Shown in pieces: positions 1-29,854 of a stretch of DNA of 29,854 nt. Position 1 is the stretch's first letter; every line of letters begins with the position of its first letter. The position numbers were made by a program, and so were the translations under genes. The DNA comes from a virus. The notes beneath the pieces were generated by a model. It made no database searches. It was given only the letters and a program-made list of their open reading frames with translations, and was not told where the DNA came from. The DNA is taken from positions 1 to 29,854 of IMG/VR virus record IMGVR_UViG_3300011416_000030; one strand, given 5' to 3'.

Positions 1-497
1 ATTCTCGCACCACCTACCACATACCACAAATGCACCCCACACCACAACGCCACAAATGCCGTGCGAACATTCTGCGCGCCGTACACCGCACCACGCGTTT
101 TTGGGCCCGCCGGCGCACCACCTATGAACATTTCGGCCGCCGCAGACGGCGGGAAGTTCTGGGAACTTGAAAGCACTTCTTCACCCTGTCCGCACTTTTC
201 CCTAACGAATTCGCGACGTTACACGGGTCGTTCGTGGCGGGCTTGTCCATTCTCGCCCAAATATCCCCGCCTTTTCACATAGTTACACAAATCGCGGACA
301 CCTCAAATTTTAGCCCTATAAGAGAGTGATGTCCGTAAAAATTTGCGGACATGCGGACATGGGGCGTCGGTCGGGGAAACCGACTCACCTGTCGGGCGGC
401 GGCCATTAGGGCCGCACGCCCTCGGGTGAAGCAGTGCACGTTACGGACAGCCCCGAGCCCCGAGGATGGGGCCGAGGGCCATACCACCAGAGACCCA
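1..497. other. Non-coding leader with repeats, upstream of the small terminase gene
   Basis: No convincing gene is visible here. The open frames present (a GTG-start frame at 61-282, and a short Arg-rich frame from the ATG at 30) lack a ribosome binding site and have low-complexity translations. The stretch holds two copies of CCACAAATGC (24-33 and 50-59), four GCGGACA/TGTCCGC heptamers (187-193 reverse, 294-300, 345-351, 353-359) and a near-perfect palindrome at 329-352. A weak promoter-like pair, CGGACA (295-300) and TATAAG (317-322) with a 16-bp spacer, is also present. Its place directly before terS makes it a candidate packaging (cos/pac) or operator region, which is inference. Confidence 0.6.
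329..352. promoter_or_regulatory. Near-perfect palindrome, candidate operator or terminase recognition site
   Basis: The arms ATGTCCGTAAA (329-339) and TTTGCGGACAT (342-352) are reverse complements except for one T/G wobble, leaving a 2-nt centre. A further CGGACAT follows directly at 354-360. The perfect 7-bp ends (ATGTCCG/CGGACAT) recur as single heptamers elsewhere in the leader. The shape fits a dimeric protein binding site. Phage TerS binding sites often lie within or just before terS, so TerS or a repressor are candidate binders. Nothing in the sequence decides between them. Confidence 0.45.
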
Positions 498-526
498 TTG
501 ACATGCCACGCCGCGCATGCTATTCT
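498..526 (+). promoter_or_regulatory. Sigma70-like extended -10 promoter for the terminase operon
   Basis: TTGACA (498-503) is followed by a 17-bp spacer and TATTCT (521-526). The spacer ends in TGC, so an extended -10 TGn element is present. The expected start point is about 533, which is exactly the ATG of one candidate TerS start. If the promoter is active, TerS starts at 434 or 503 are excluded. The architecture matches the promoter at 5271-5299. Confidence 0.7.
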
Positions 527-532
527 GGCCGT

Positions 533-1159
533 ATGGGTAGGATACGTCGACCGCCACGGCCGCAGGCGCCGCTCGTACCACATACGCAAGCGACGCCCTA
601 TTCTATGGACGCGCGGACGTACGAACGCGAGGAGTTGGGGGAACAAGAACTTGAAATCCTTCGTCGCCTTCTCGAACGACAAGAACCTAAGAGCATATGT
701 GTCGACATGGGGCTTGCGCGGCAGACTCTGGATGCACTGTCCCTTCAACCCAGGTTTCAGCGTGAGTACGAACTTCAGGCGAAGATTGCCGATCGAAGCA
801 TTCGAGTACGCATGGAACGCCTCGCAGGTGAGGCTCTTGACGTTGTCCGAGACGTTATGCGTACTGCGGTATCTCCCGGTAACCGCCTTCGAGCTGCGGT
901 GGAGATACTTGATCGAAGCGGCTACGTCAAAATTGAGAAGCGACTCACGGTTACCGCCGATGCTGAATCGATCATTCGCGAACTCAATCGTCTGGGAGCC
1001 ACCGACGCTGTGCCGTCTGACCCAGTGACCGTACCACATGCCACACAAGTCGTACCTACTAATGAAGGGGGAGAAACATTTGAAGACGCGGAATTTGAGG
1101 AAATCGGCGCGGCCGTCGCCAACGCCGTCGCCGAAGGGCGACTCGATCAAGACGCTTAA
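533..1159 (+). CDS. terS: Small terminase subunit (TerS-like)
   Basis: This 208-residue protein probably binds the packaging site and hands the DNA to the large terminase. A helix-turn-helix-like segment lies near residues 51-75 (EPKSICVDMGLARQTLDAL). A helical block follows at 91-133, ending in ILDRSGYVK, a pattern common in TerS oligomerisation regions. An acidic tail (residues 178-190) precedes the stop. The gene comes first in the cluster, just before the large terminase. The frame stays open up to a GTG at 434, but a consensus promoter at 498-526 makes 533 (nearly leaderless) or 605 more likely. No Shine-Dalgarno is visible at either. The assignment rests on position plus helical character and not on a diagnostic motif. 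Confidence 0.65.
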   Translation: MGRIRRPPRPQAPLVPHTQATPYSMDARTYEREELGEQELEILRRLLERQEPKSICVDMGLARQTLDALSLQPRFQREYELQAKIADRSIRVRMERLAGEALDVVRDVMRTAVSPGNRLRAAVEILDRSGYVKIEKRLTVTADAESIIRELNRLGATDAVPSDPVTVPHATQVVPTNEGGETFEDAEFEEIGAAVANAVAEGRLDQDA

Positions 1160-1181: not shown

Positions 1182-1379
1182 GTGCCCCGGGCGCTGCCGC
1201 CCGTCGATCTGGACGCACAGGAGTGGCGCTGCATTCTCACGATCCATCGGGCCAACGAACTGACCGACCAGCAACGCTACGTTATCGTCAATTGGCTGCG
1301 GGCCAAGATCAATGAACTCGGGACCGATGAGTTCGGCCGCAACCTCGCACCGACATATCGCGCACGGACCCTGGTGTAA
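1182..1379 (+). CDS. Small protein between small and large terminase, function unknown
   Basis: I do not recognise this 65-residue protein. The C-terminal part looks like folded helical protein (QEWRCILTIHRANELTDQQ and the following WLRAKINELG). Its stop overlaps the start of the large terminase ATPase ORF by one base (TAATG), which implies translational coupling. The chosen GTG at 1182 has a weak AAGG eight bases upstream and avoids overlap with terS. Longer versions starting at ATG 1038 or 1062 would overlap terS by about 100-120 bp and add a Lys/Arg-rich head that may simply shadow the acidic tail of TerS. The end is secure; the start is not. Confidence 0.55.
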   Translation: MPRALPPVDLDAQEWRCILTIHRANELTDQQRYVIVNWLRAKINELGTDEFGRNLAPTYRARTLV

Positions 1380-2014
1380 TGGCCACACTGACCAAAGACC
1401 AAGAGATCGCCCGCACGATGAAGCGGTGGTACAGTGACCCGTGGGCCGCCATACGCGAGGGCAAAATCTTTACGCTTGACCAGACGGACGCGCGGACGCC
1501 GGTAAAACAGTTTCCCCCGAAACAACACCTCGAACAGATCACGCGGATATGGGAAGCAAACCCCATGTTGCTTGTACCCAAGAGTCGGCGCATGATGCTT
1601 TCGTGGTTGATGTGCTACCTGCATTTGTGGTATGCTATGTTTCACCCAGGACGTGCGATCTTTATCGTCAGCGACAAGGAGCAAAAGAGTGATGGTCTGG
1701 TCCGTATGTGTGAATTCATGTACACGAATATCCCAGACGGGACAATTCTTAAACCGATCATGCGCTCAAAATATTGCGCGCTGGAGTTTCCCGGACTGGA
1801 TTCCTACATCATGGGCCTTCCAAGCGGGGCCGCTCAGCTTCGACAGTACACCGCTTCTGCGCTACTTTTTGATGAATTTGCATTTTGGGGTGACGCCATG
1901 GAAACGCTTGGTGCTGCTCGGCCCACTATCGAAGGTGGGGGGCGTCTCACCATCGTCTCTTCAGCACAAGATGGTCCATATAAAAAACTCGTGTTCGATG
2001 AAACCCTGGCTTAA
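1379..2014 (+). CDS. terL: Large terminase, ATPase half (split gene)
   Basis: This is the N-terminal packaging-motor ATPase domain of a large terminase, 211 residues long, where an intact TerL usually has about 450-600. Visible motifs are a deviant Walker A (VPKSRRMMLSW, residues 66-76, no GK[ST]), a Walker B with catalytic acid (ALLFDEFAFW, D165/E166) and a coupling-motif-like TIVSSAQ (191-197). The ORF ends with TAA at 2012-2014, exactly where the linker to the nuclease domain would begin. The nuclease domain is a separate ORF at 2235-3203. The intervening ORF at 2030 is in the same frame as this one, separated by a single TAA and five codons. The start is coupled (TAATG) to the preceding small gene. 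Confidence 0.9.
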   Translation: MATLTKDQEIARTMKRWYSDPWAAIREGKIFTLDQTDARTPVKQFPPKQHLEQITRIWEANPMLLVPKSRRMMLSWLMCYLHLWYAMFHPGRAIFIVSDKEQKSDGLVRMCEFMYTNIPDGTILKPIMRSKYCALEFPGLDSYIMGLPSGAAQLRQYTASALLFDEFAFWGDAMETLGAARPTIEGGGRLTIVSSAQDGPYKKLVFDETLA

Positions 2015-2029
2015 CATAGCGGAGGAATA

Positions 2030-2245
2030 ATGTTTGACGAAGGACAGCATCATCCCAAGTGGTCGTTTGTACGCGGGTGGAACGAGCGGCGTTGCACATG
2101 CGCCGCCTGCTTACCGGCGTTGCAGTTCCGACAGCAGCCTACCATGGCGCCATACCTGCCGGTAATGCAGCCACAGCCAGCGCCCTCCCCCTATTTTTAT
2201 GGTGACATAGTCCGAACCACCAGCGGCACCACCAATGTCAAGTAA
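2030..2245 (+). CDS. 71-residue ORF inserted between the two terminase halves
   Basis: I do not recognise this protein. It has a strong ribosome binding site (GGAGGA five bases before the ATG), and its end overlaps the nuclease ORF start by 11 bp, so it sits in the operon like a real gene. The first half is aromatic and charged with a C-x-C-x2-C motif near residues 22-27 (RCTCAAC). The second half is proline-rich (MQPQPAPSPYFY). It is in frame with the upstream ATPase ORF, so readthrough of one UAA would fuse them. It could be a motor accessory protein, a linker brought in by readthrough and frameshift, or a small inserted cargo gene. The sequence alone does not decide. Confidence 0.6.
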   Translation: MFDEGQHHPKWSFVRGWNERRCTCAACLPALQFRQQPTMAPYLPVMQPQPAPSPYFYGDIVRTTSGTTNVK

Positions 2246-3203
2246 CGTCTCGCCACTCGCGGCCGTACTACTGGGCAACCCGGGCGGCATCGCATACGTC
2301 CCGGACCTACCCCAGGGCGCCGTCGTCACCAACACCACGCGCGGCATATGGGAGTGGACCAATGTACAAAACGGCTTTCACGTCGCGCTCGTTCATTTTT
2401 CAAGCGACCCTTCCAAGGACAGTGACGCATTCGTCACGGAAGCACGCAAAGGAACTTCGGTCGCTAACTACGAACGCGAGTACAATATTCGCTGGCAAAG
2501 TTTTCGAGGCAAGCCGGTTTTCTCGGAAGACTTCAAGCGTAATTTCCACGTTTCTACCGCGCCACTCGTGGCCCAGTCACAACTACCTATTATTCGTGGA
2601 TGGGACTTCGGTCTATATCCCGCATGTGTGTTTACCCAATTATGGCCGGGGATGCGATTGGTGGTGCTCCGAGAGATATGCGAATCGGGCATGGGTCTCG
2701 AACGGTTTCTCGAAGAGGTTGCTGCGAAATCCATTGAGTGGTTTCCGGGGTCGCGCAAGTACTACGAAGTAGTAGACCCCGCAGGTTTCGCCCGCTCGGC
2801 GAACGACGAACGTACCGCCGTGTCGATGCTCGCGAACACGTCGACATACCGCATGAACGTCACTCCCGGGGTGCAGGTTCCGGCGGAGCGTCTCAAGGCC
2901 GTACGCAAATTCCTGAGTCGCGTGGTGCGCGGCGAGCCCGCGATGCTGATCGACCCATCGTGCCCCATGGTCATCGGTGGCATGGACGGCGGCTACCACT
3001 ATTCCTATAATGTATCTGGACAACTCAGAGAAAAGCCCGAGAAAAACATCTACTCACATCCGGCCGACGCCCTACAGTATGTGGCCACGCGAGTCCTGGA
3101 AATGGACCTGAGTGGTACTGCGGTGCCCGAAATCAAATCTCCCAGTTATGGTTTCAGAAATGCTAACTCAATAAAGGAACACACCCAACATGGCACAAAA
3201 TAG
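2235..3203 (+). CDS. terL: Large terminase, nuclease half (split gene)
   Basis: This is the C-terminal RuvC/RNase H-fold nuclease domain of a large terminase, 322 residues, which cuts concatemeric DNA during packaging. Candidate metal-binding acids are D124 (RGWDFG, 121-126), D181 (VVDPAG, 179-184) and D278 (HPADALQY, 275-282). The stretch around residues 37-60 (GIWEWTNVQNGFHVALVHF then SSDP) looks like the usual TerL linker between motor and nuclease. The first roughly 25 residues have no evident counterpart in other terminases that I know. Translation is probably coupled to the 71-codon ORF, which it overlaps by 11 bp. The 3' end overlaps the portal start by 14 bp. Confidence 0.9.
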   Translation: MSSNVSPLAAVLLGNPGGIAYVPDLPQGAVVTNTTRGIWEWTNVQNGFHVALVHFSSDPSKDSDAFVTEARKGTSVANYEREYNIRWQSFRGKPVFSEDFKRNFHVSTAPLVAQSQLPIIRGWDFGLYPACVFTQLWPGMRLVVLREICESGMGLERFLEEVAAKSIEWFPGSRKYYEVVDPAGFARSANDERTAVSMLANTSTYRMNVTPGVQVPAERLKAVRKFLSRVVRGEPAMLIDPSCPMVIGGMDGGYHYSYNVSGQLREKPEKNIYSHPADALQYVATRVLEMDLSGTAVPEIKSPSYGFRNANSIKEHTQHGTK

Positions 3204-5178
3204 TTCTACCTATACCGGCGTACAACTCGCCCAAGACGAGGTAAAAGAAGGTGCAAAGCAAAAGACCAAAACCGCCGTGGTGGACGATGAGACCGCTCTC
3301 GCCTTTTTCACGCATGTCTACACGGCCGCTGATGAGGCGCGGCGGCCTCGTGAGGCCGTCTGGAAGCAGTCTTGGGATTTGTACAACGGTCAGTACGACT
3401 GGAGCGGCAAAGCGAACTGGCAATCAAAGGTCAACATCTCACTGGTACGGCAAGCCGTCGACCGCGCAGCAGCGACCTTTCGTCGCGCGCTCGTTCGCAT
3501 GCGTAACTTTTTTGGGGTCGAAGCGGAATCCCGGGTTGGTTATCAGCAGGGTTTGTTCACGCGTTCCCTTTTGGATTACTGGCTCGACCGCGCCGGATTT
3601 GTGCGAGAGTTCACTTCGGCACTTAAGGTGGGTCTCATCACTTCAACGATCATAATGAAAGTGTGGTGGGAGTACTGTTGGGTCAACGACTTGACCGTCG
3701 AAATGCAAGAGAGTAAAGTTCCTACAGAGTCGTTCGGTCTGGAGACAGGATATGAAACCAAGCAAGTTGCTAAACCAAAACGCGGCCAGAGGCTTGTTGG
3801 TAAACTGGGACTTCGAGCTGTCGATCCGTTCAAGTTTTGGGTGGTCCCAGGGAGTGAAGGTCGATACGTCATCGAGCGTACCGAAGCTTTGCTTGCAGAT
3901 TTGGAAGCCATGGCAAAAAAGGGTATTTATGACATCGAGGCCGTTGCGCGGCTCGTACCTAATGCAGGTTCCGCTGACGTAAACTCCCAGGAAGACGCCG
4001 AGCGCAAGGGCGAACTTCCGGCGACCAATAAAAACTCGTTCATGAAAAGCGTCAATCTTTACCACTACTGGGGCGACATCTTCGACGAAGAGGGCAAGAT
4101 TCTGATGCGCGACGCGACGTTCACCGTGGTGTGCAGCGCGAACGGTGACCCCGTCGAGATCATTCGCAAGCCCCGGGCGAATCCCTTCTTTCACGGCTGC
4201 GCGCCCTACGTCGTCGGTACGCCCTACGTGGTACCATTCTCGACTTACAATCGCGGCATCGTCGAAGACGTGGCGGGCGTCGCCTGCATGATTACGGAAC
4301 TCTCGAACCTCATTGCGGACGGCGCCATGTTCGACGCCATCAAGGCATTCGAAATCGACATTGACCAACTTTACTCTCAGGCGGAGGCAGCCGATGGTGT
4401 GTATCCCGGGAAGACATTTCGTAAAAGTGGACTCAAATCAGGACCCGTGGACAAGCCCCTTGTACGGGCTGTTGACGTGGGCAAAATGCCACACGAGGCC
4501 ATCCATGCGCTGGCATACTTCGACAGTATCTTCCAGAAAGGGACACAGATCACTGAATTCGTTTCTGGATTCGGGGGGAGCGGAAGCAAGACTGCCACTG
4601 AGGTCTCTACAAAGACATCGCAGGCTCTCGAAGGGCTCGATGATGCCGCTCGTACCGTGGAAGAAACCGTCATTGAGCCGCTGCTGGAGCTGGGAGCAAA
4701 GACGATTTACCAGTTTCACACGAACTATACAATGCCCCGTCTGGTCGAAAACTTCCCTCAAGCCTCGATGATGCTGCAAACCCTCTCACCGGCCGAGCGT
4801 TACATCCTGATGGCGGCCGACGAGGGCTTTCAGTTCAAGGCGCGTGGCATAAGCATCATGCTGGACAAACAAAAATCCCTTGAACAAGTAGGGCAGTTCT
4901 TGCAACTCGCGGGCCACATCCCCGGGATGCTCCAGCGCCTCAACGTCGACTACGTCCTCGAAGACATCTCCATGGCCCTCGGCTGGAACCCCGAGCGCGC
5001 GCTACTCCGGCCCGCACCTTCGGTCCAGGTAATGGGCCAACAGGGCGCCCAGGGCGGCCAAGGCTTTCCACAACAGGGCACCGGTCCCACCCCAGCGCAA
5101 CAGGTCGCGGGTGAGCAGGGAGCCGAGCAGGGTGGAGCACAAGGGAATCCCATGGCAATTATGGGAGCTTTAGGGTAA
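3190..5178 (+). CDS. Portal protein
   Basis: This 662-residue protein forms the dodecameric ring at the head vertex through which DNA enters and leaves, and which binds the terminase and the adaptor. The length and position directly after the terminase are typical for podovirus portals. The N-terminal part contains a WDLYNGQYDW segment and a long helical stretch (RQAVDRAAATFRRALVRM). The middle has the mixed alpha/beta stem region. The last 50 residues are Gln/Gly-rich and low complexity (VMGQQGAQGGQGFPQQG), a common feature of portal tails. The ribosome binding site is AAAGGA, and the start lies within the end of the nuclease ORF. Confidence 0.85.
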   Translation: MAQNSSTYTGVQLAQDEVKEGAKQKTKTAVVDDETALAFFTHVYTAADEARRPREAVWKQSWDLYNGQYDWSGKANWQSKVNISLVRQAVDRAAATFRRALVRMRNFFGVEAESRVGYQQGLFTRSLLDYWLDRAGFVREFTSALKVGLITSTIIMKVWWEYCWVNDLTVEMQESKVPTESFGLETGYETKQVAKPKRGQRLVGKLGLRAVDPFKFWVVPGSEGRYVIERTEALLADLEAMAKKGIYDIEAVARLVPNAGSADVNSQEDAERKGELPATNKNSFMKSVNLYHYWGDIFDEEGKILMRDATFTVVCSANGDPVEIIRKPRANPFFHGCAPYVVGTPYVVPFSTYNRGIVEDVAGVACMITELSNLIADGAMFDAIKAFEIDIDQLYSQAEAADGVYPGKTFRKSGLKSGPVDKPLVRAVDVGKMPHEAIHALAYFDSIFQKGTQITEFVSGFGGSGSKTATEVSTKTSQALEGLDDAARTVEETVIEPLLELGAKTIYQFHTNYTMPRLVENFPQASMMLQTLSPAERYILMAADEGFQFKARGISIMLDKQKSLEQVGQFLQLAGHIPGMLQRLNVDYVLEDISMALGWNPERALLRPAPSVQVMGQQGAQGGQGFPQQGTGPTPAQQVAGEQGAEQGGAQGNPMAIMGALG

Positions 5179-26438: not shown

Positions 26439-26620
26439 GCAAACTCCTCTTTCCCCGCCAGTTTATCCAGGGTAAAGTGCGCTTTGTCCAGGGCACAAAG
26501 GTCACACAACCACGCCAGGCAAAATGGGCAGCGCGCCATGGTTCGACTGTCGTCATTTCGGCCGCCACACTCCGCGCAGTGAACTACGGCAGCATCTGAT
26601 ATTTCGTTCGTATGATCCAT
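26396..26620 (-). CDS. Small zinc-binding protein, B-box-like pattern (copy 2)
   Basis: The 74-residue protein has C15-x2-C18, C31-x2-C34, C39-x2-C42 and H48, followed by LDKLAGKEEF. It is shortest and cleanest of the four related zinc proteins. The start at 26620 is chosen over 26758, which would lie far inside the ATPase gene. It overlaps the ATPase gene by 37 bp and the next zinc gene by 43 bp. The function is unknown; a zinc-stabilised adaptor or nucleic acid binder is possible. Confidence 0.6.
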   Translation of the reverse strand: MDHTNEISDAAVVHCAECGGRNDDSRTMARCPFCLAWLCDLCALDKAHFTLDKLAGKEEFAWTPRSRYAWRWMT

Positions 26621-27510
26621 CGTCGTACCGTACGTCCTGTTATAGGCGGCGTCAGTAAGGTCCCAATGACATCGTGACGCTCGACCATCGATTTTTTCGT
26701 GTACGCAGGGTCCAGGGCGACGGCGCTTTGTTCGGCCCGACTCAAGCGCAGCAGCCACTGCGTTGCATCATTGGGCAAGTACGGCAACACGCGACATCCC
26801 ACGTCGTCTACATATACGTCGTCGCCTTCATTCTCAGGCGCCACTTGGGACTTGACTATTTGCAAATGCGCTAAATGGTTCCCCTTGAGGTACATTTGCA
26901 GCTCCGACTGGACCATAGCCATCCATAGATTGGAGCCAAGAGCGTCTTCCCTGTGGGGCGGGATAGGCCCAAACTGCCCTATTGTTTGCTTGCGAGAGTG
27001 ATGGAGAAGTATAATAGCCTGGTGTGGAAAAAGGCCCCTTAGGGCGGCGACGGTTAAGCCGGGGACCCAGTCGTCCTTTAGCGACAGTCCATTGGTGATC
27101 GTACTCAGTGAGTCGATCATAACCACTTGGTAGCGTCTCGCCTTGTATGCCAATGCCTGAAAAACGCCAGGGTGATTGGCTTGTAAGGTAGTAATATTCA
27201 GGTGGTTTGCAAAGTCGCATATGTCAAACCTCGGCTCGTAGTTCGCATTCTTCATGCGATTGTAAATTTGGATGCTCGGCATATCAAGATTACAGAGTAG
27301 CGTCAGGGCCTTCGACGTGCGGTACTTGCCGAGGAACGGCGTGCCCTTGCGAATCGACTCGGCCATTGTCCAAAGCAGCGTGGATTTGCCGCACGACGGC
27401 GGGCCAAATACCAATGTGATGCCCTGCGCCGGAACGAGTTGGTCAACGAGAAACGACGGCCCCGTATGGGGCTCCCTCATGAATCTTTTACCAGTTCTCC
27501 AAGTGAACAT
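26584..27510 (-). CDS. RecA-fold ATPase, RepA/AAA_25-like
   Basis: The 308-residue protein has Walker A GPPSCGKST (36-44), Walker B VVMIDS (129-134) and a sensor-like LLHHSRK (168-174). The N-terminal LVDQLVPAQGITLVF leads into the P-loop as in RepA/AAA_25 helicase-like ATPases. A C-terminal winged-helix-like part (MVERHDVIGTLLTP, then GRTVRRWI) may bind DNA. It is the best candidate here for the replicative helicase or a recombination ATPase working with the polymerase. The start at 27510 follows AAAGG; an ATGA-coupled start at 27480 is also possible and would remove ten residues. Confidence 0.85.
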   Translation of the reverse strand: MFTWRTGKRFMREPHTGPSFLVDQLVPAQGITLVFGPPSCGKSTLLWTMAESIRKGTPFLGKYRTSKALTLLCNLDMPSIQIYNRMKNANYEPRFDICDFANHLNITTLQANHPGVFQALAYKARRYQVVMIDSLSTITNGLSLKDDWVPGLTVAALRGLFPHQAIILLHHSRKQTIGQFGPIPPHREDALGSNLWMAMVQSELQMYLKGNHLAHLQIVKSQVAPENEGDDVYVDDVGCRVLPYLPNDATQWLLRLSRAEQSAVALDPAYTKKSMVERHDVIGTLLTPPITGRTVRRWIIRTKYQMLP

Positions 27511-27710
27511 CTGCGCCTTTCTAGGTCTAGTGCAATGACCTTATAGTAAGGTTGCACTATGCCACTTTCGTTTCCGGCCGCCAACACGTGCATGGCCAGG
27601 TGTGCATCCCAGCACGCAGTGCATGGATGATCCCAGCATTGTGTCCAGGGACAGACCGGAATACCGTCATCAAAACCCATTTCCTTATGACACTCGGGAC
27701 AAAGTCTCAT
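27477..27710 (-). CDS. Small zinc-binding protein, B-box-like pattern (copy 1)
   Basis: The 77-residue protein has C4-x2-C7, C20, C25, C30-x2-C33, H37 and H41 (TACWDAHLAMHVL), the same order of metal ligands as three others downstream. Its ATG overlaps the polymerase stop (ATGA), and its end overlaps the ATPase start region. The C-terminal part (YYKVIALDLERRRCSLGELV) is separate from the zinc part. The function is unknown. Confidence 0.7.
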   Translation of the reverse strand: MRLCPECHKEMGFDDGIPVCPWTQCWDHPCTACWDAHLAMHVLAAGNESGIVQPYYKVIALDLERRRCSLGELVKDS

Positions 27711-29854
27711 GCCATCTCCGCAGCCACGTGTTCGTATGTCATTTCTTCTGCGACATGTGTTTCGTACCCCGCCAGTAGTGGCGTAGCATCGCGCTCACCT
27801 TGCCACTTAACCATCGGGTGCCAATATCGGCCCCACGCAATTTCCGTGGGAATAACCAGCGTAGCAAAACCCATAGGGATAGGGATAGCAAGATTGGCAA
27901 CCAGCCGCTCACAACACTCGCCGAGGCGATCATAAGGTACAGAAACAAGGCAAGAGTCATGGCCCTGGTGATGCAACCAAAGATAGTCCAGCTCAGCCCA
28001 CGTACGCAGCATGCCCTGGTTGAGCACGTCGGGCACCGTAGCTTGTGGGATATAGGCGATTGCGTTTCGCCAACTTTCGCCAGATAACGAACCCGTGAGT
28101 AGTACCTCCGCCCGTGCATGATAGAATATCCTTTCCCGCCCTAGTGGTGTGATGAGTTTGCCGACCTGAAGAATCGCTTCCCGGGTGCGTGCATGCCAAG
28201 CCTGTAGTTCAGGATAGCGCGCGTAATATGTACCCAATATCTCTTGGGCGCGAGCTTTCGAGATACCAGCCTCGATTGCAAATCTATCCGGTCCCATTTT
28301 GTAATTTGCAGCATGCAAGCATTGTTTCGCGATGACATAATTCTTCGAGTCCTTGACCACCTCGTGGCCAAAAATTGCTAGGGCGTTTTCCATGTGGACG
28401 CTGCGCTTAGGGTCGGCGAAGAGGGCGATAAGGTCGGGGCAACGCGCAAGATAGGCAGATACCCGAGCTTCGGCTTGGGAGAGATCGGGTTGAATGAAAA
28501 CGCGGCCCGGCGGCGCCTCATACGAATATCGAAGAAGCTTTGGCACTGTCTGGAGATTGAGACCACGTCTATGAGCTGACTTACCACTACTCCATCGTCC
28601 GGTTTCCGTGCCAGCAATGTTCCACGCGCAGCCCAAGTATCCATCGGGATCAATCGTTGTGTCAAGATAAGAGGACAGCTTTTTGCGTAGATGACGTTCC
28701 TTGATGATAAGTTCGAGTTCCTGGCAATCTGGGTACTTTGTACGAAGGGTTTTGAGCGCATTCTCATCCACGCTTTGCTTGTGGTCAACAATAATTGGTG
28801 TAAGTTTTTTGTGGCCGTAGAGAAAGTCCTTGACTTGCTTGGGTGAGTTGATGTTGACGATAATGCCAGACGCCAACTCGCGAAAGGCTCGTGTAGCCTC
28901 GGCCTCCCTCCGTGCGATGTCCCGAAGAAGCTCATGATTTACCTCGTTCCTCTTGAGTCGCGTGCGCTGCATCTCCAGCGCCGCAAAGATTTCTTTGTTG
29001 ATGTAATCATGAACGAAACCCAGGCGCCCTTGCAGGAACAACTCCTTCTCAATACCGATCGCCGCGCGCAGCGTGTAGAAACAATCTTGGGCATTATAAT
29101 ACCAGAGCCTTTCGTCGGGTTGCTTCCAGCCCCACGTTTTTCCGTCGTCTTTGTAGTAGGGCGCATCCGTGTATAAACTCACTATCATGTCCAAACCCTT
29201 TGAAAACTCGGGATAAAGGAGAGCGAACCCAAGCATCGTATCCAAACGTACTGCCGTAGGTAAAATGCCGTAGTCGAGAAGCCATTCCAGGTCGAAAGTC
29301 AGGTTCTGTCCTACGAGGTTTGGATTGCGGCGCATGAGGCGACCAAGGGCTTGCCATACTGCGAGTTCTTGGGCGGGTGTGAAATATGGGCCGACCGTAG
29401 TTTGTAGAGGGATACATAAGGCGGTAGAACCAAAACCCACCCCCACACACGTCAGCGAATCCGCTCGTGTTTCGATATCTAGGGACCATAACTCATCACT
29501 CCTTATGGCATTAAGACAACCCACAGCTATCTCGAAAGATGGCTTGGTGATAGGCGTCCATACCTCGCGGCGTATGTCCGGGAATGCTGACTCACTCAAG
29601 ATACGCTTTGCGTCGTGCTGCGCGATGAACAAATCACCGAAGTTACCGCGCATGATGTACTCAGGAGCGAATGTCGGCACGACCTTAAGTCCGGGCACCA
29701 GCGTCGAAGGCAGCACGCTGCCCCGGTACTTGGTAAGTCTGTGTACGTCACATAGTTTTACAAGCGCAGCCTCGCCTATAGGCACTACAACATTCGGCCG
29801 TAGCCCCACACGGGTGAGATGTGTGACCAGATCAACATCGTCCGCATGCATGAG
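27707..29854 (-). CDS. polA: Family A DNA polymerase with uracil-DNA-glycosylase-like N-terminus, partial
   Basis: The gene runs off the right end; the codon before the first in-window ATG (29851) is open, so the N-terminus is missing. Numbering from that Met: residues 19-70 resemble the C-terminal half of a family 4-type uracil-DNA glycosylase (PNVVVPIGEAAL; TKYRGS; LKVVPTFAPEYIMRG). The 3'-5' exonuclease has D125/E127 (SLDIET), N183/D187 (GQNLTFD) and Y252/D256 (YNAQD). Polymerase motifs are TETGRW (415-420), motif A DLSQAEARV with D456, motif B K509 to NYKMG, and motif C GHDS with D632. It should replicate and proofread the phage genome. SPO1 polymerase is a known precedent for a UDG-polymerase fusion. 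Confidence 0.92.
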   Translation of the reverse strand, partial: LMHADDVDLVTHLTRVGLRPNVVVPIGEAALVKLCDVHRLTKYRGSVLPSTLVPGLKVVPTFAPEYIMRGNFGDLFIAQHDAKRILSESAFPDIRREVWTPITKPSFEIAVGCLNAIRSDELWSLDIETRADSLTCVGVGFGSTALCIPLQTTVGPYFTPAQELAVWQALGRLMRRNPNLVGQNLTFDLEWLLDYGILPTAVRLDTMLGFALLYPEFSKGLDMIVSLYTDAPYYKDDGKTWGWKQPDERLWYYNAQDCFYTLRAAIGIEKELFLQGRLGFVHDYINKEIFAALEMQRTRLKRNEVNHELLRDIARREAEATRAFRELASGIIVNINSPKQVKDFLYGHKKLTPIIVDHKQSVDENALKTLRTKYPDCQELELIIKERHLRKKLSSYLDTTIDPDGYLGCAWNIAGTETGRWSSGKSAHRRGLNLQTVPKLLRYSYEAPPGRVFIQPDLSQAEARVSAYLARCPDLIALFADPKRSVHMENALAIFGHEVVKDSKNYVIAKQCLHAANYKMGPDRFAIEAGISKARAQEILGTYYARYPELQAWHARTREAILQVGKLITPLGRERIFYHARAEVLLTGSLSGESWRNAIAYIPQATVPDVLNQGMLRTWAELDYLWLHHQGHDSCLVSVPYDRLGECCERLVANLAIPIPMGFATLVIPTEIAWGRYWHPMVKWQGERDATPLLAGYETHVAEEMTYEHVAAEMA

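What the first reader, a model, noticed from the sequence alone, without database searches (positions are those of the whole stretch)
1379..3203. Large terminase encoded as two ORFs with a 71-codon ORF between them
The ATPase motifs (Walker A-like, DE, coupling motif) and the RuvC-like nuclease acids are on separate ORFs, each complete and each with its own plausible initiation site, split exactly at the domain linker. A third ORF with a strong GGAGGA site lies between. It is in frame with the ATPase ORF (one UAA plus five codons apart) and overlaps the nuclease start by 11 bp. Possible explanations are a two-polypeptide motor with an accessory linker protein, programmed UAA readthrough plus a frameshift giving a fusion, or a removed insertion (intron-like). 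A simple sequencing error is unlikely because about 220 extra bases separate the halves.
Basis: partly seen in the sequence, partly recalled or inferred. Interest (0 to 1): 0.72.

Follow-up and report, generated by a model that had tools for sequence, protein, structure and literature searches.

The report
Phage DNA-packaging motor in two pieces
The phage's DNA-packaging enzyme, normally one protein, is encoded here as two separate proteins cut inside the motor domain. Related phages carry the same cut, some with the two halves on opposite DNA strands kilobases apart, so the enzyme is probably assembled from two chains.

Summary
ORFs 1379-2014, 2030-2245 and 2235-3203 encode a TerL ATPase piece, a 71-residue protein and a nuclease piece. 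The same three-ORF order occurs in relatives with up to about 8% protein divergence, and all three ORFs are under purifying selection. UAA readthrough is excluded as a conserved mechanism: in relative L009 the 71-codon ORF is in another frame. No intron or intein signature was found. The split lies inside the ATPase domain, after the coupling motif, not at the ATPase/nuclease linker; the last two core strands and the lid region are on the 'nuclease' ORF. Single-ORF relatives bridge this site with a short linker and lack the 71-residue protein. Many relatives are cut at the same residue with nothing, unrelated small ORFs or HNH genes in between. In a 47-locus clade the ATPase piece ends at this site; in ten contigs the lid+nuclease piece lies on the opposite strand about 5-11 kb away, where cis explanations fail. 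Best explanation: a genes-in-pieces TerL whose two polypeptides assemble into one motor subunit. The 71-residue ORF is a lineage-specific insert that may couple translation of the second half. Assembly itself is inferred, not shown.

The parts
434..1159 (+). small-terminase-like ORF upstream of the ATPase piece
   Evidence: PHROG phrog_2538 terminase small subunit E 6e-6; the start codon is not certain
1379..2014 (+). TerL piece 1: ATPase core, 211 aa (Walker-A-like VPKSRRMMLSW, Walker-B LLFDE, coupling motif SSAQ); ends right after LVFDE-TLA
   Evidence: 41% identity to the N-terminal part of single-chain TerL L206/L047; dN/dS 0.04-0.10
2021..2026 (+). GGAGGA, Shine-Dalgarno-like site of the 71-codon ORF
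   Evidence: sequence; retained as GGAGGA in L007 and L009, largely deleted in L001
2030..2245 (+). 71-codon ORF in the split; conserved N-terminal 27 residues with CxCxxC, fast-evolving Pro-rich tail; no family match
   Evidence: length changes inside it keep its frame, the one frame-breaking indel falls in the spacer before its ATG; dN/dS 0.29-0.39
2235..2245 (+). 11-nt overlap ATGTCAAGTAA of the 71-codon ORF stop and the nuclease-piece start; likely termination-reinitiation
   Evidence: conserved in L007 and L009; mechanism inferred
2235..3203 (+). TerL piece 2, 322 aa: lineage-specific N-terminus and linker (about 1-36), last ATPase core strands and lid region (about 37-91), RuvC/RNase-H-like nuclease (about 92-289; GWDFG, DPAG, SHPADALQY)
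   Evidence: dN/dS 0.06-0.10
3190..5178 (+). portal protein next to piece 2
   Evidence: Pfam SU10_portal E 8e-15, PHROG phrog_332

Best explanation
This is a 'genes-in-pieces' large terminase. Two polypeptides are translated independently: an ATPase-core piece, and a piece carrying the last core strands, the lid and the nuclease. They associate non-covalently to rebuild one TerL subunit of the packaging motor. The cut lies in a loop of the ATPase domain, after the coupling motif, where single-chain relatives have a short flexible linker. The 71-codon ORF is a lineage-specific gene inserted at that site, like the HNH genes and other small ORFs found there in relatives. In this lineage it probably keeps the nuclease piece translated by termination-reinitiation. 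Shown: the split, its conservation, selection on all three ORFs, the common cut site, and opposite-strand encoding of the pieces in a related clade. Inferred: physical assembly, activity, translational coupling, and HNH insertion as a cause of splitting.
For: Three-ORF layout and purifying selection in three diverged lineages. Single-ORF homologues align to both pieces collinearly with a short linker and no 71-aa part. The predicted fold of the single-chain homologue places the cut (residues ~219-240, low pLDDT) before two strands within the range aligned to the T4 gp17 ATPase domain (2o0h Z 23.3, model 3-260 = gp17 97-315; nuclease = P22 4dkw Z 17.2). Same cut site in L210, L211, L212, L229, L230, L274 and 47 further loci (46 end exactly 2 residues after it). 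In nine contigs with nearly complete nuclease pieces plus one truncated, that piece is on the opposite strand 4.8-11 kb from the ATPase piece (one only if the contig is circular); where annotated it lies next to a portal gene, with one ATPase and one nuclease hit per contig where found. Both pieces are under purifying selection there (dN/dS 0.05-0.22). Precedent: split NrdA of phage Aeh1 and split polymerase 43A/43B of phage 25 are active (PMC2988022).
Against: No protein, interaction or packaging data. All relatives of this family are metagenomic contigs; none is cultured. Neither piece alone looks like a full ATPase domain, so assembly must be efficient, and it was not modelled (no multimer prediction was available). 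The contigs may be fragments, so an additional intact TerL elsewhere cannot be fully excluded. The trees do not settle whether splitting happened once with later fusions or repeatedly (3 changes minimum on both trees).
Confidence: 0.8

Rival explanations
1. Self-splicing intron: the ~250-nt segment is removed from the mRNA and one TerL is made, as in phage ICP1 terL.
For: terL introns exist: ICP1 terL is spliced (PMC10448857); terL of phage IBB_35 has an intron and an intein (PMC3322345). The site carries HNH genes in L274 and L243.
Against: No Rfam match even at E 5; RNA fold no better than shuffles (z -0.16); codon-level selection and frame-keeping length changes inside the segment; in the related clade the pieces are on opposite strands, so cis-splicing is impossible.
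Confidence: 0.05
2. Recoding: UAA readthrough at 2012-2014 joins the ATPase piece to the 71-codon ORF, and a frameshift near 2240 joins the nuclease piece, giving one long protein.
For: In the window the ATPase and 71-codon ORFs share a frame; L001 has a natural 24-nt deletion that fuses those two in frame, so such a fusion may be tolerated.
Against: In L009 the stop is UGA and the 71-codon ORF is in another frame relative to the ATPase ORF; each ORF has its own start, with a strong SD for the middle one; relatives lack the middle ORF or have an unrelated one.
Confidence: 0.03
3. Three-protein motor: the 71-residue protein (conserved CxCxxC head, Pro-rich tail) is a structural adaptor joining the two TerL pieces.
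For: Conserved N-terminal 27 residues under purifying selection; found only between the two pieces in the window lineage; fused to the ATPase piece in L001.
Against: The closest split relatives manage without it: L210 has only a ~50-nt spacer and L211 an unrelated ORF. The fast-evolving tail and low-confidence model (pLDDT ~30-38) give no sign of a conserved interface.
Confidence: 0.07
4. Split-intein trans-splicing ligates the two pieces after translation.
For: Split inteins with endonuclease genes between gene halves are known in phages (Dassa et al. 2009, as cited in PMC10448857; a DNA polymerase example in PMC6892783); the L212 nuclease piece contains a LAGLIDADG-type insertion that looks like an intein.
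Against: The ATPase ORFs end a few residues after the homologous region and the nuclease ORFs have only ~20-36 extra N-terminal residues, too little for intein halves.
Confidence: 0.01
5. The split gene is decaying and packaging relies on another TerL not seen in the contig.
For: The window is a linear contig of 29.9 kb and may be incomplete.
Against: Strong purifying selection on both pieces in two separate clades; catalytic motifs kept; position next to the portal gene; no other TerL hit in the related contigs searched.
Confidence: 0.04

Closest known systems
Genes-in-pieces ribonucleotide reductase of phage Aeh1 (nrdA split by mobE; PMC2988022)
   Same: One essential enzyme encoded as two ORFs with a small gene between; pieces expected to reassemble; HNH genes at the same site in relatives
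   Different: Other enzyme; no endonuclease in the window's own gap; in one related clade the two pieces are dispersed to opposite strands
Split DNA polymerase 43A/43B of Aeromonas phages 25 and 44RR (PMC2988022)
   Same: Split phage enzyme; in 44RR the halves are separated by a sequence without an endonuclease gene, and in phage 25 they copurify with activity
   Different: Not a packaging motor; halves adjacent
ICP1 terL with intron (PMC10448857); IBB_35 terL with intein and intron (PMC3322345); Mic1 terL with two inteins (PMC7156551)
   Same: Interrupted terL in phages
   Different: There one continuous TerL is restored by RNA or protein splicing; here no such element was found and relatives encode the pieces in trans
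T4-type TerL (gp17; Pfam Terminase_6N, PHROG phrog_2)
   Same: ATPase fold and motifs; the ATPase piece matches T4-like and jumbo-phage TerLs
   Different: Single chain; the Walker-A-like KSRRM motif and the nuclease type differ
BcepC6B / Pmp11 / Rollin-type TerL nuclease
   Same: Nuclease residues 92-289 are 35-41% identical
   Different: Their ATPase domains show no BLAST similarity to the window ATPase; single chain

Membership tests
Large terminase subunit (TerL) | ATPase domain of the terminase type with Walker A/B and coupling motif | tested here: met
   PHROG phrog_2, Pfam Terminase_6N below cut-off; fold of the homologue L206 matches T4 gp17. Motifs read from sequence; activity not testable
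Large terminase subunit (TerL) | RuvC/RNase-H-like nuclease domain with acidic residues | tested here: met
   30-41% identity to TerL nucleases; invariant D124, D181, D278 across relatives; the homologue's fold matches P22, SPP1 and G20c nucleases
Large terminase subunit (TerL) | Both domains in one polypeptide | tested here: not met
   Two ORFs in window and relatives
Genes-in-pieces enzyme | Single-ORF homologues exist that align collinearly to both pieces | tested here: met
   L206, L207, L213-L228, L231, L271
Genes-in-pieces enzyme | Pieces assemble into an active enzyme | not testable with these tools
   Needs co-purification and activity assay
Genes-in-pieces enzyme | Mobile endonuclease gene at the split site | tested here: inconclusive
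   Absent in the window; HNH_3 genes next to the same site in L274 and L243
Group I/II intron-interrupted terL | Intron RNA in the interrupting segment | tested here: inconclusive
   No Rfam match at E<=5 in 1850-2450, fold z -0.16; lack of a match does not exclude an unknown intron
Split intein | Intein halves on the facing ends of the ORFs | tested here: not met
   ORF ends too close to the homologous region

The most novel reading that the evidence does not exclude
A family of tailed phages builds its packaging motor from two-chain TerL subunits cut inside the ATPase domain. In one clade the ATPase core and the lid+nuclease are expressed from opposite strands, so motor assembly and the switch between translocation and cutting could be regulated by when each chain is made.
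Probability: 0.65. Interest if true: 0.8.

Novelty: new variant of a known kind. Interest (0 to 1): 0.7.

Why it matters
TerL is normally a single-chain ATPase-nuclease and is a standard marker gene for tailed phages. A natural two-chain TerL cut inside the ATPase domain, with the halves even on opposite strands, would show that ATP hydrolysis and the lid/nuclease need no covalent link. It offers a ready-made system for dissecting how the motor couples translocation to cutting. It would also explain some phages that seem to lack a complete TerL in automatic annotation.

Tried and rejected
(1) Domain chimera as cause of the split: the ATPase half resembles T4-like TerLs and the nuclease half BcepC6B-type TerLs, suggesting a recombination junction near nuclease residue 91. 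Single-ORF relatives have the same domain combination, so it is independent of the split. (2) Rfam intron search and RNA folding: nothing. (3) PDB sequence search with both pieces: no meaningful hit. (4) Family search for the 71-aa protein in Pfam, PHROG, phages and IMG/VR: only the same lineage. (5) Structure of the L001 natural ATPase+71-aa fusion: no confident fold for the added part. (6) Bacterial and archaeal genomes: no relatives found, so hosts are unknown. (7) Literature for a TerL encoded by two non-spliced genes: none found in the held open-access library; subscription papers were not searchable. (8) L229 and L212 splits (short stop/start overlaps, single contigs) could be frameshift errors and are not relied on.

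Full report
WHAT IS THERE. The three ORFs are exactly as described: 1379-2014, 2030-2245 and 2235-3203 on the + strand, with an in-frame UAA and five codons between the first two and an 11-nt overlap between the last two. The first carries a Walker-A-like VPKSRRMMLSW, LLFDE and SSAQ; the third carries GWDFG, DPAG and SHPADALQY. PHROG phrog_2 (terminase large subunit) matches both, Pfam Terminase_6N the first weakly; a small-terminase-like ORF lies upstream and an SU10-type portal follows. The middle ORF matches nothing.

CONSERVATION WITHIN THE LINEAGE. IMG/VR holds several contigs with the same layout, most nearly identical, three diverged (L007/L008 and L009, 91-93% protein identity in the two TerL pieces). 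L009 has a UGA stop after the ATPase piece, and its middle ORF is in a different frame relative to the ATPase piece because one extra base lies in the spacer before its ATG; the other length changes, inside the middle ORF, keep its frame. That pattern is what three separately translated ORFs give, and it excludes readthrough as a conserved mechanism. Nei-Gojobori dN/dS is 0.04-0.10 (ATPase), 0.06-0.10 (nuclease) and 0.29-0.39 (middle ORF; 0.13-0.24 in its first 30 codons). L001 carries a 24-nt deletion that fuses the ATPase and middle ORFs in frame while the nuclease ORF stays separate; it rests on one contig. The GGAGGA site precedes the middle ORF, and no such site precedes the nuclease start, so termination-reinitiation across ATGTCAAGTAA is likely (inference).

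WHERE THE CUT LIES. L206/L047 and L207 encode single-ORF TerLs homologous to both pieces (41% over ATPase residues 4-208, 34% over nuclease residues 41-307) with a short linker and no middle part. The AlphaFold2 model of L206 (mean pLDDT 80.6) has a low-confidence loop at 221-240; two strands (241-247, 254-260) and two helices follow before the nuclease begins near 297. VIA-align matches model residues 3-260 to T4 gp17 97-315 (2o0h, Z 23.3, rmsd 2.6 A) and 3-307 to 97-359 (2o0j), and the nuclease to P22, SPP1 and G20c TerL nucleases. The window's cut corresponds to this loop. The second ORF therefore carries the last core strands and lid region of the ATPase as well as the nuclease. (That gp17 residues up to about 360 form the ATPase domain is from general knowledge and the titles of the 2o0h/2o0j entries.)

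THE CUT IS SHARED BY MANY RELATIVES. A scan with an ATPase alignment kept 80 loci. Seventeen distinct relatives in the tree have a single ORF. L210 and L211 (56-58% ATPase identity, grouped with the window lineage at 100/100 support) are split at the same place: L210 has only a ~50-nt spacer, L211 an unrelated ~82-codon ORF. L230 has 1.3 kb of small ORFs there and L274 2.5 kb with HNH genes at both ends. L212 and L229 show stop/start overlaps but could be frameshift errors. In 47 further loci the ATPase ORF ends at this site, in 46 of them exactly two residues beyond the equivalent of the window's residue 208; an HNH gene directly follows in L243.

THE PIECES CAN BE FAR APART. Searching whole contigs of that clade with a profile of the second piece found it on the opposite strand in nine contigs plus one truncated case, 4.8-11 kb away (one of them only if the contig is circular). 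The other contigs tested gave no second piece, but most are short fragments. The piece starts at the same point of the alignment and keeps GWDFG, DAGDP and VDA. In the contig annotated in detail (G003) it sits just upstream of a portal-like gene and a major head protein gene of the window's type. At most one ATPase place per contig was found with phrog_2, and no further TerL with two Pfam families in the contigs tested. Both pieces are under purifying selection there. No cis-acting RNA or translational event can join these halves, so separate polypeptides that assemble are the simplest reading for the family. Trans-splicing is possible in principle, but nothing points to it and the ORF ends leave no room for intein halves.

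EVOLUTION. ATPase and second-piece trees each need at least three changes between one-ORF and two-ORF states (trees). The second-piece tree groups the dispersed clade with L274, whose gap holds HNH genes, at 100/100. Whether a mobile endonuclease caused an early split or invaded a site already split is open; both are discussed for T4-type phages (PMC2988022).

MECHANISM. Most likely the two polypeptides fold together as one TerL subunit. In the window lineage the middle ORF is an inserted gene retained under moderate selection; its clearest role from the anatomy is to bring ribosomes to the nuclease start. A role as structural adaptor is less likely because the nearest split relatives lack it.

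RELATION TO KNOWN SYSTEMS. It works like the split NrdA of Aeh1 and split polymerase of phage 25 (PMC2988022). Interrupted terL genes are known, but with introns or inteins that restore one protein (PMC10448857, PMC3322345, PMC7156551). I found no report of a TerL encoded by two unspliced genes, dispersed or adjacent, in the library searched. The claim is therefore a new variant of a known kind, limited by the absence of any protein data and by the metagenomic origin of all members.

Noticed in passing
window 1379-3203: The TerL family joins a T4-like ATPase to a BcepC6B-type nuclease; sequence similarity to the latter starts sharply at residue 92 of the second ORF, which suggests an old recombination inside TerL.
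   Followed up: partly
window 1571-1610: The P-loop is a KSRRM-type motif without the usual glycine-lysine; KSRRM is kept in the window, L206, L207 and the dispersed clade.
   Followed up: no
L001 around 1605-1610: A natural 24-nt deletion removes the stop and Shine-Dalgarno site and fuses the ATPase piece to the 71-aa ORF in frame.
   Followed up: partly
L212 1507-3369: LAGLIDADG-containing, intein-like insertion in the nuclease motif GWDFGL|...|TPA of the second TerL piece.
   Followed up: no
L230 4760-5900: Several small ORFs with a repeated motif (IEHFKPLAHRIATAIEEKIRKLRFPGEPE and variants) fill the 1.3-kb gap between the TerL pieces.
   Followed up: no
L232, L243, L270, L276 downstream of the ATPase ORF: Different unrelated small ORFs directly follow the ATPase piece in different members (HNH, sigma-like HTH, Cys-rich), as at an insertion hotspot.
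   Followed up: partly
window 27707-29854 (minus): DNA polymerase ORF runs off the window end (PHROG phrog_17, E 1e-77), on the opposite strand to the structural genes, next to a primase/helicase-like ORF 26584-27510.
   Followed up: no
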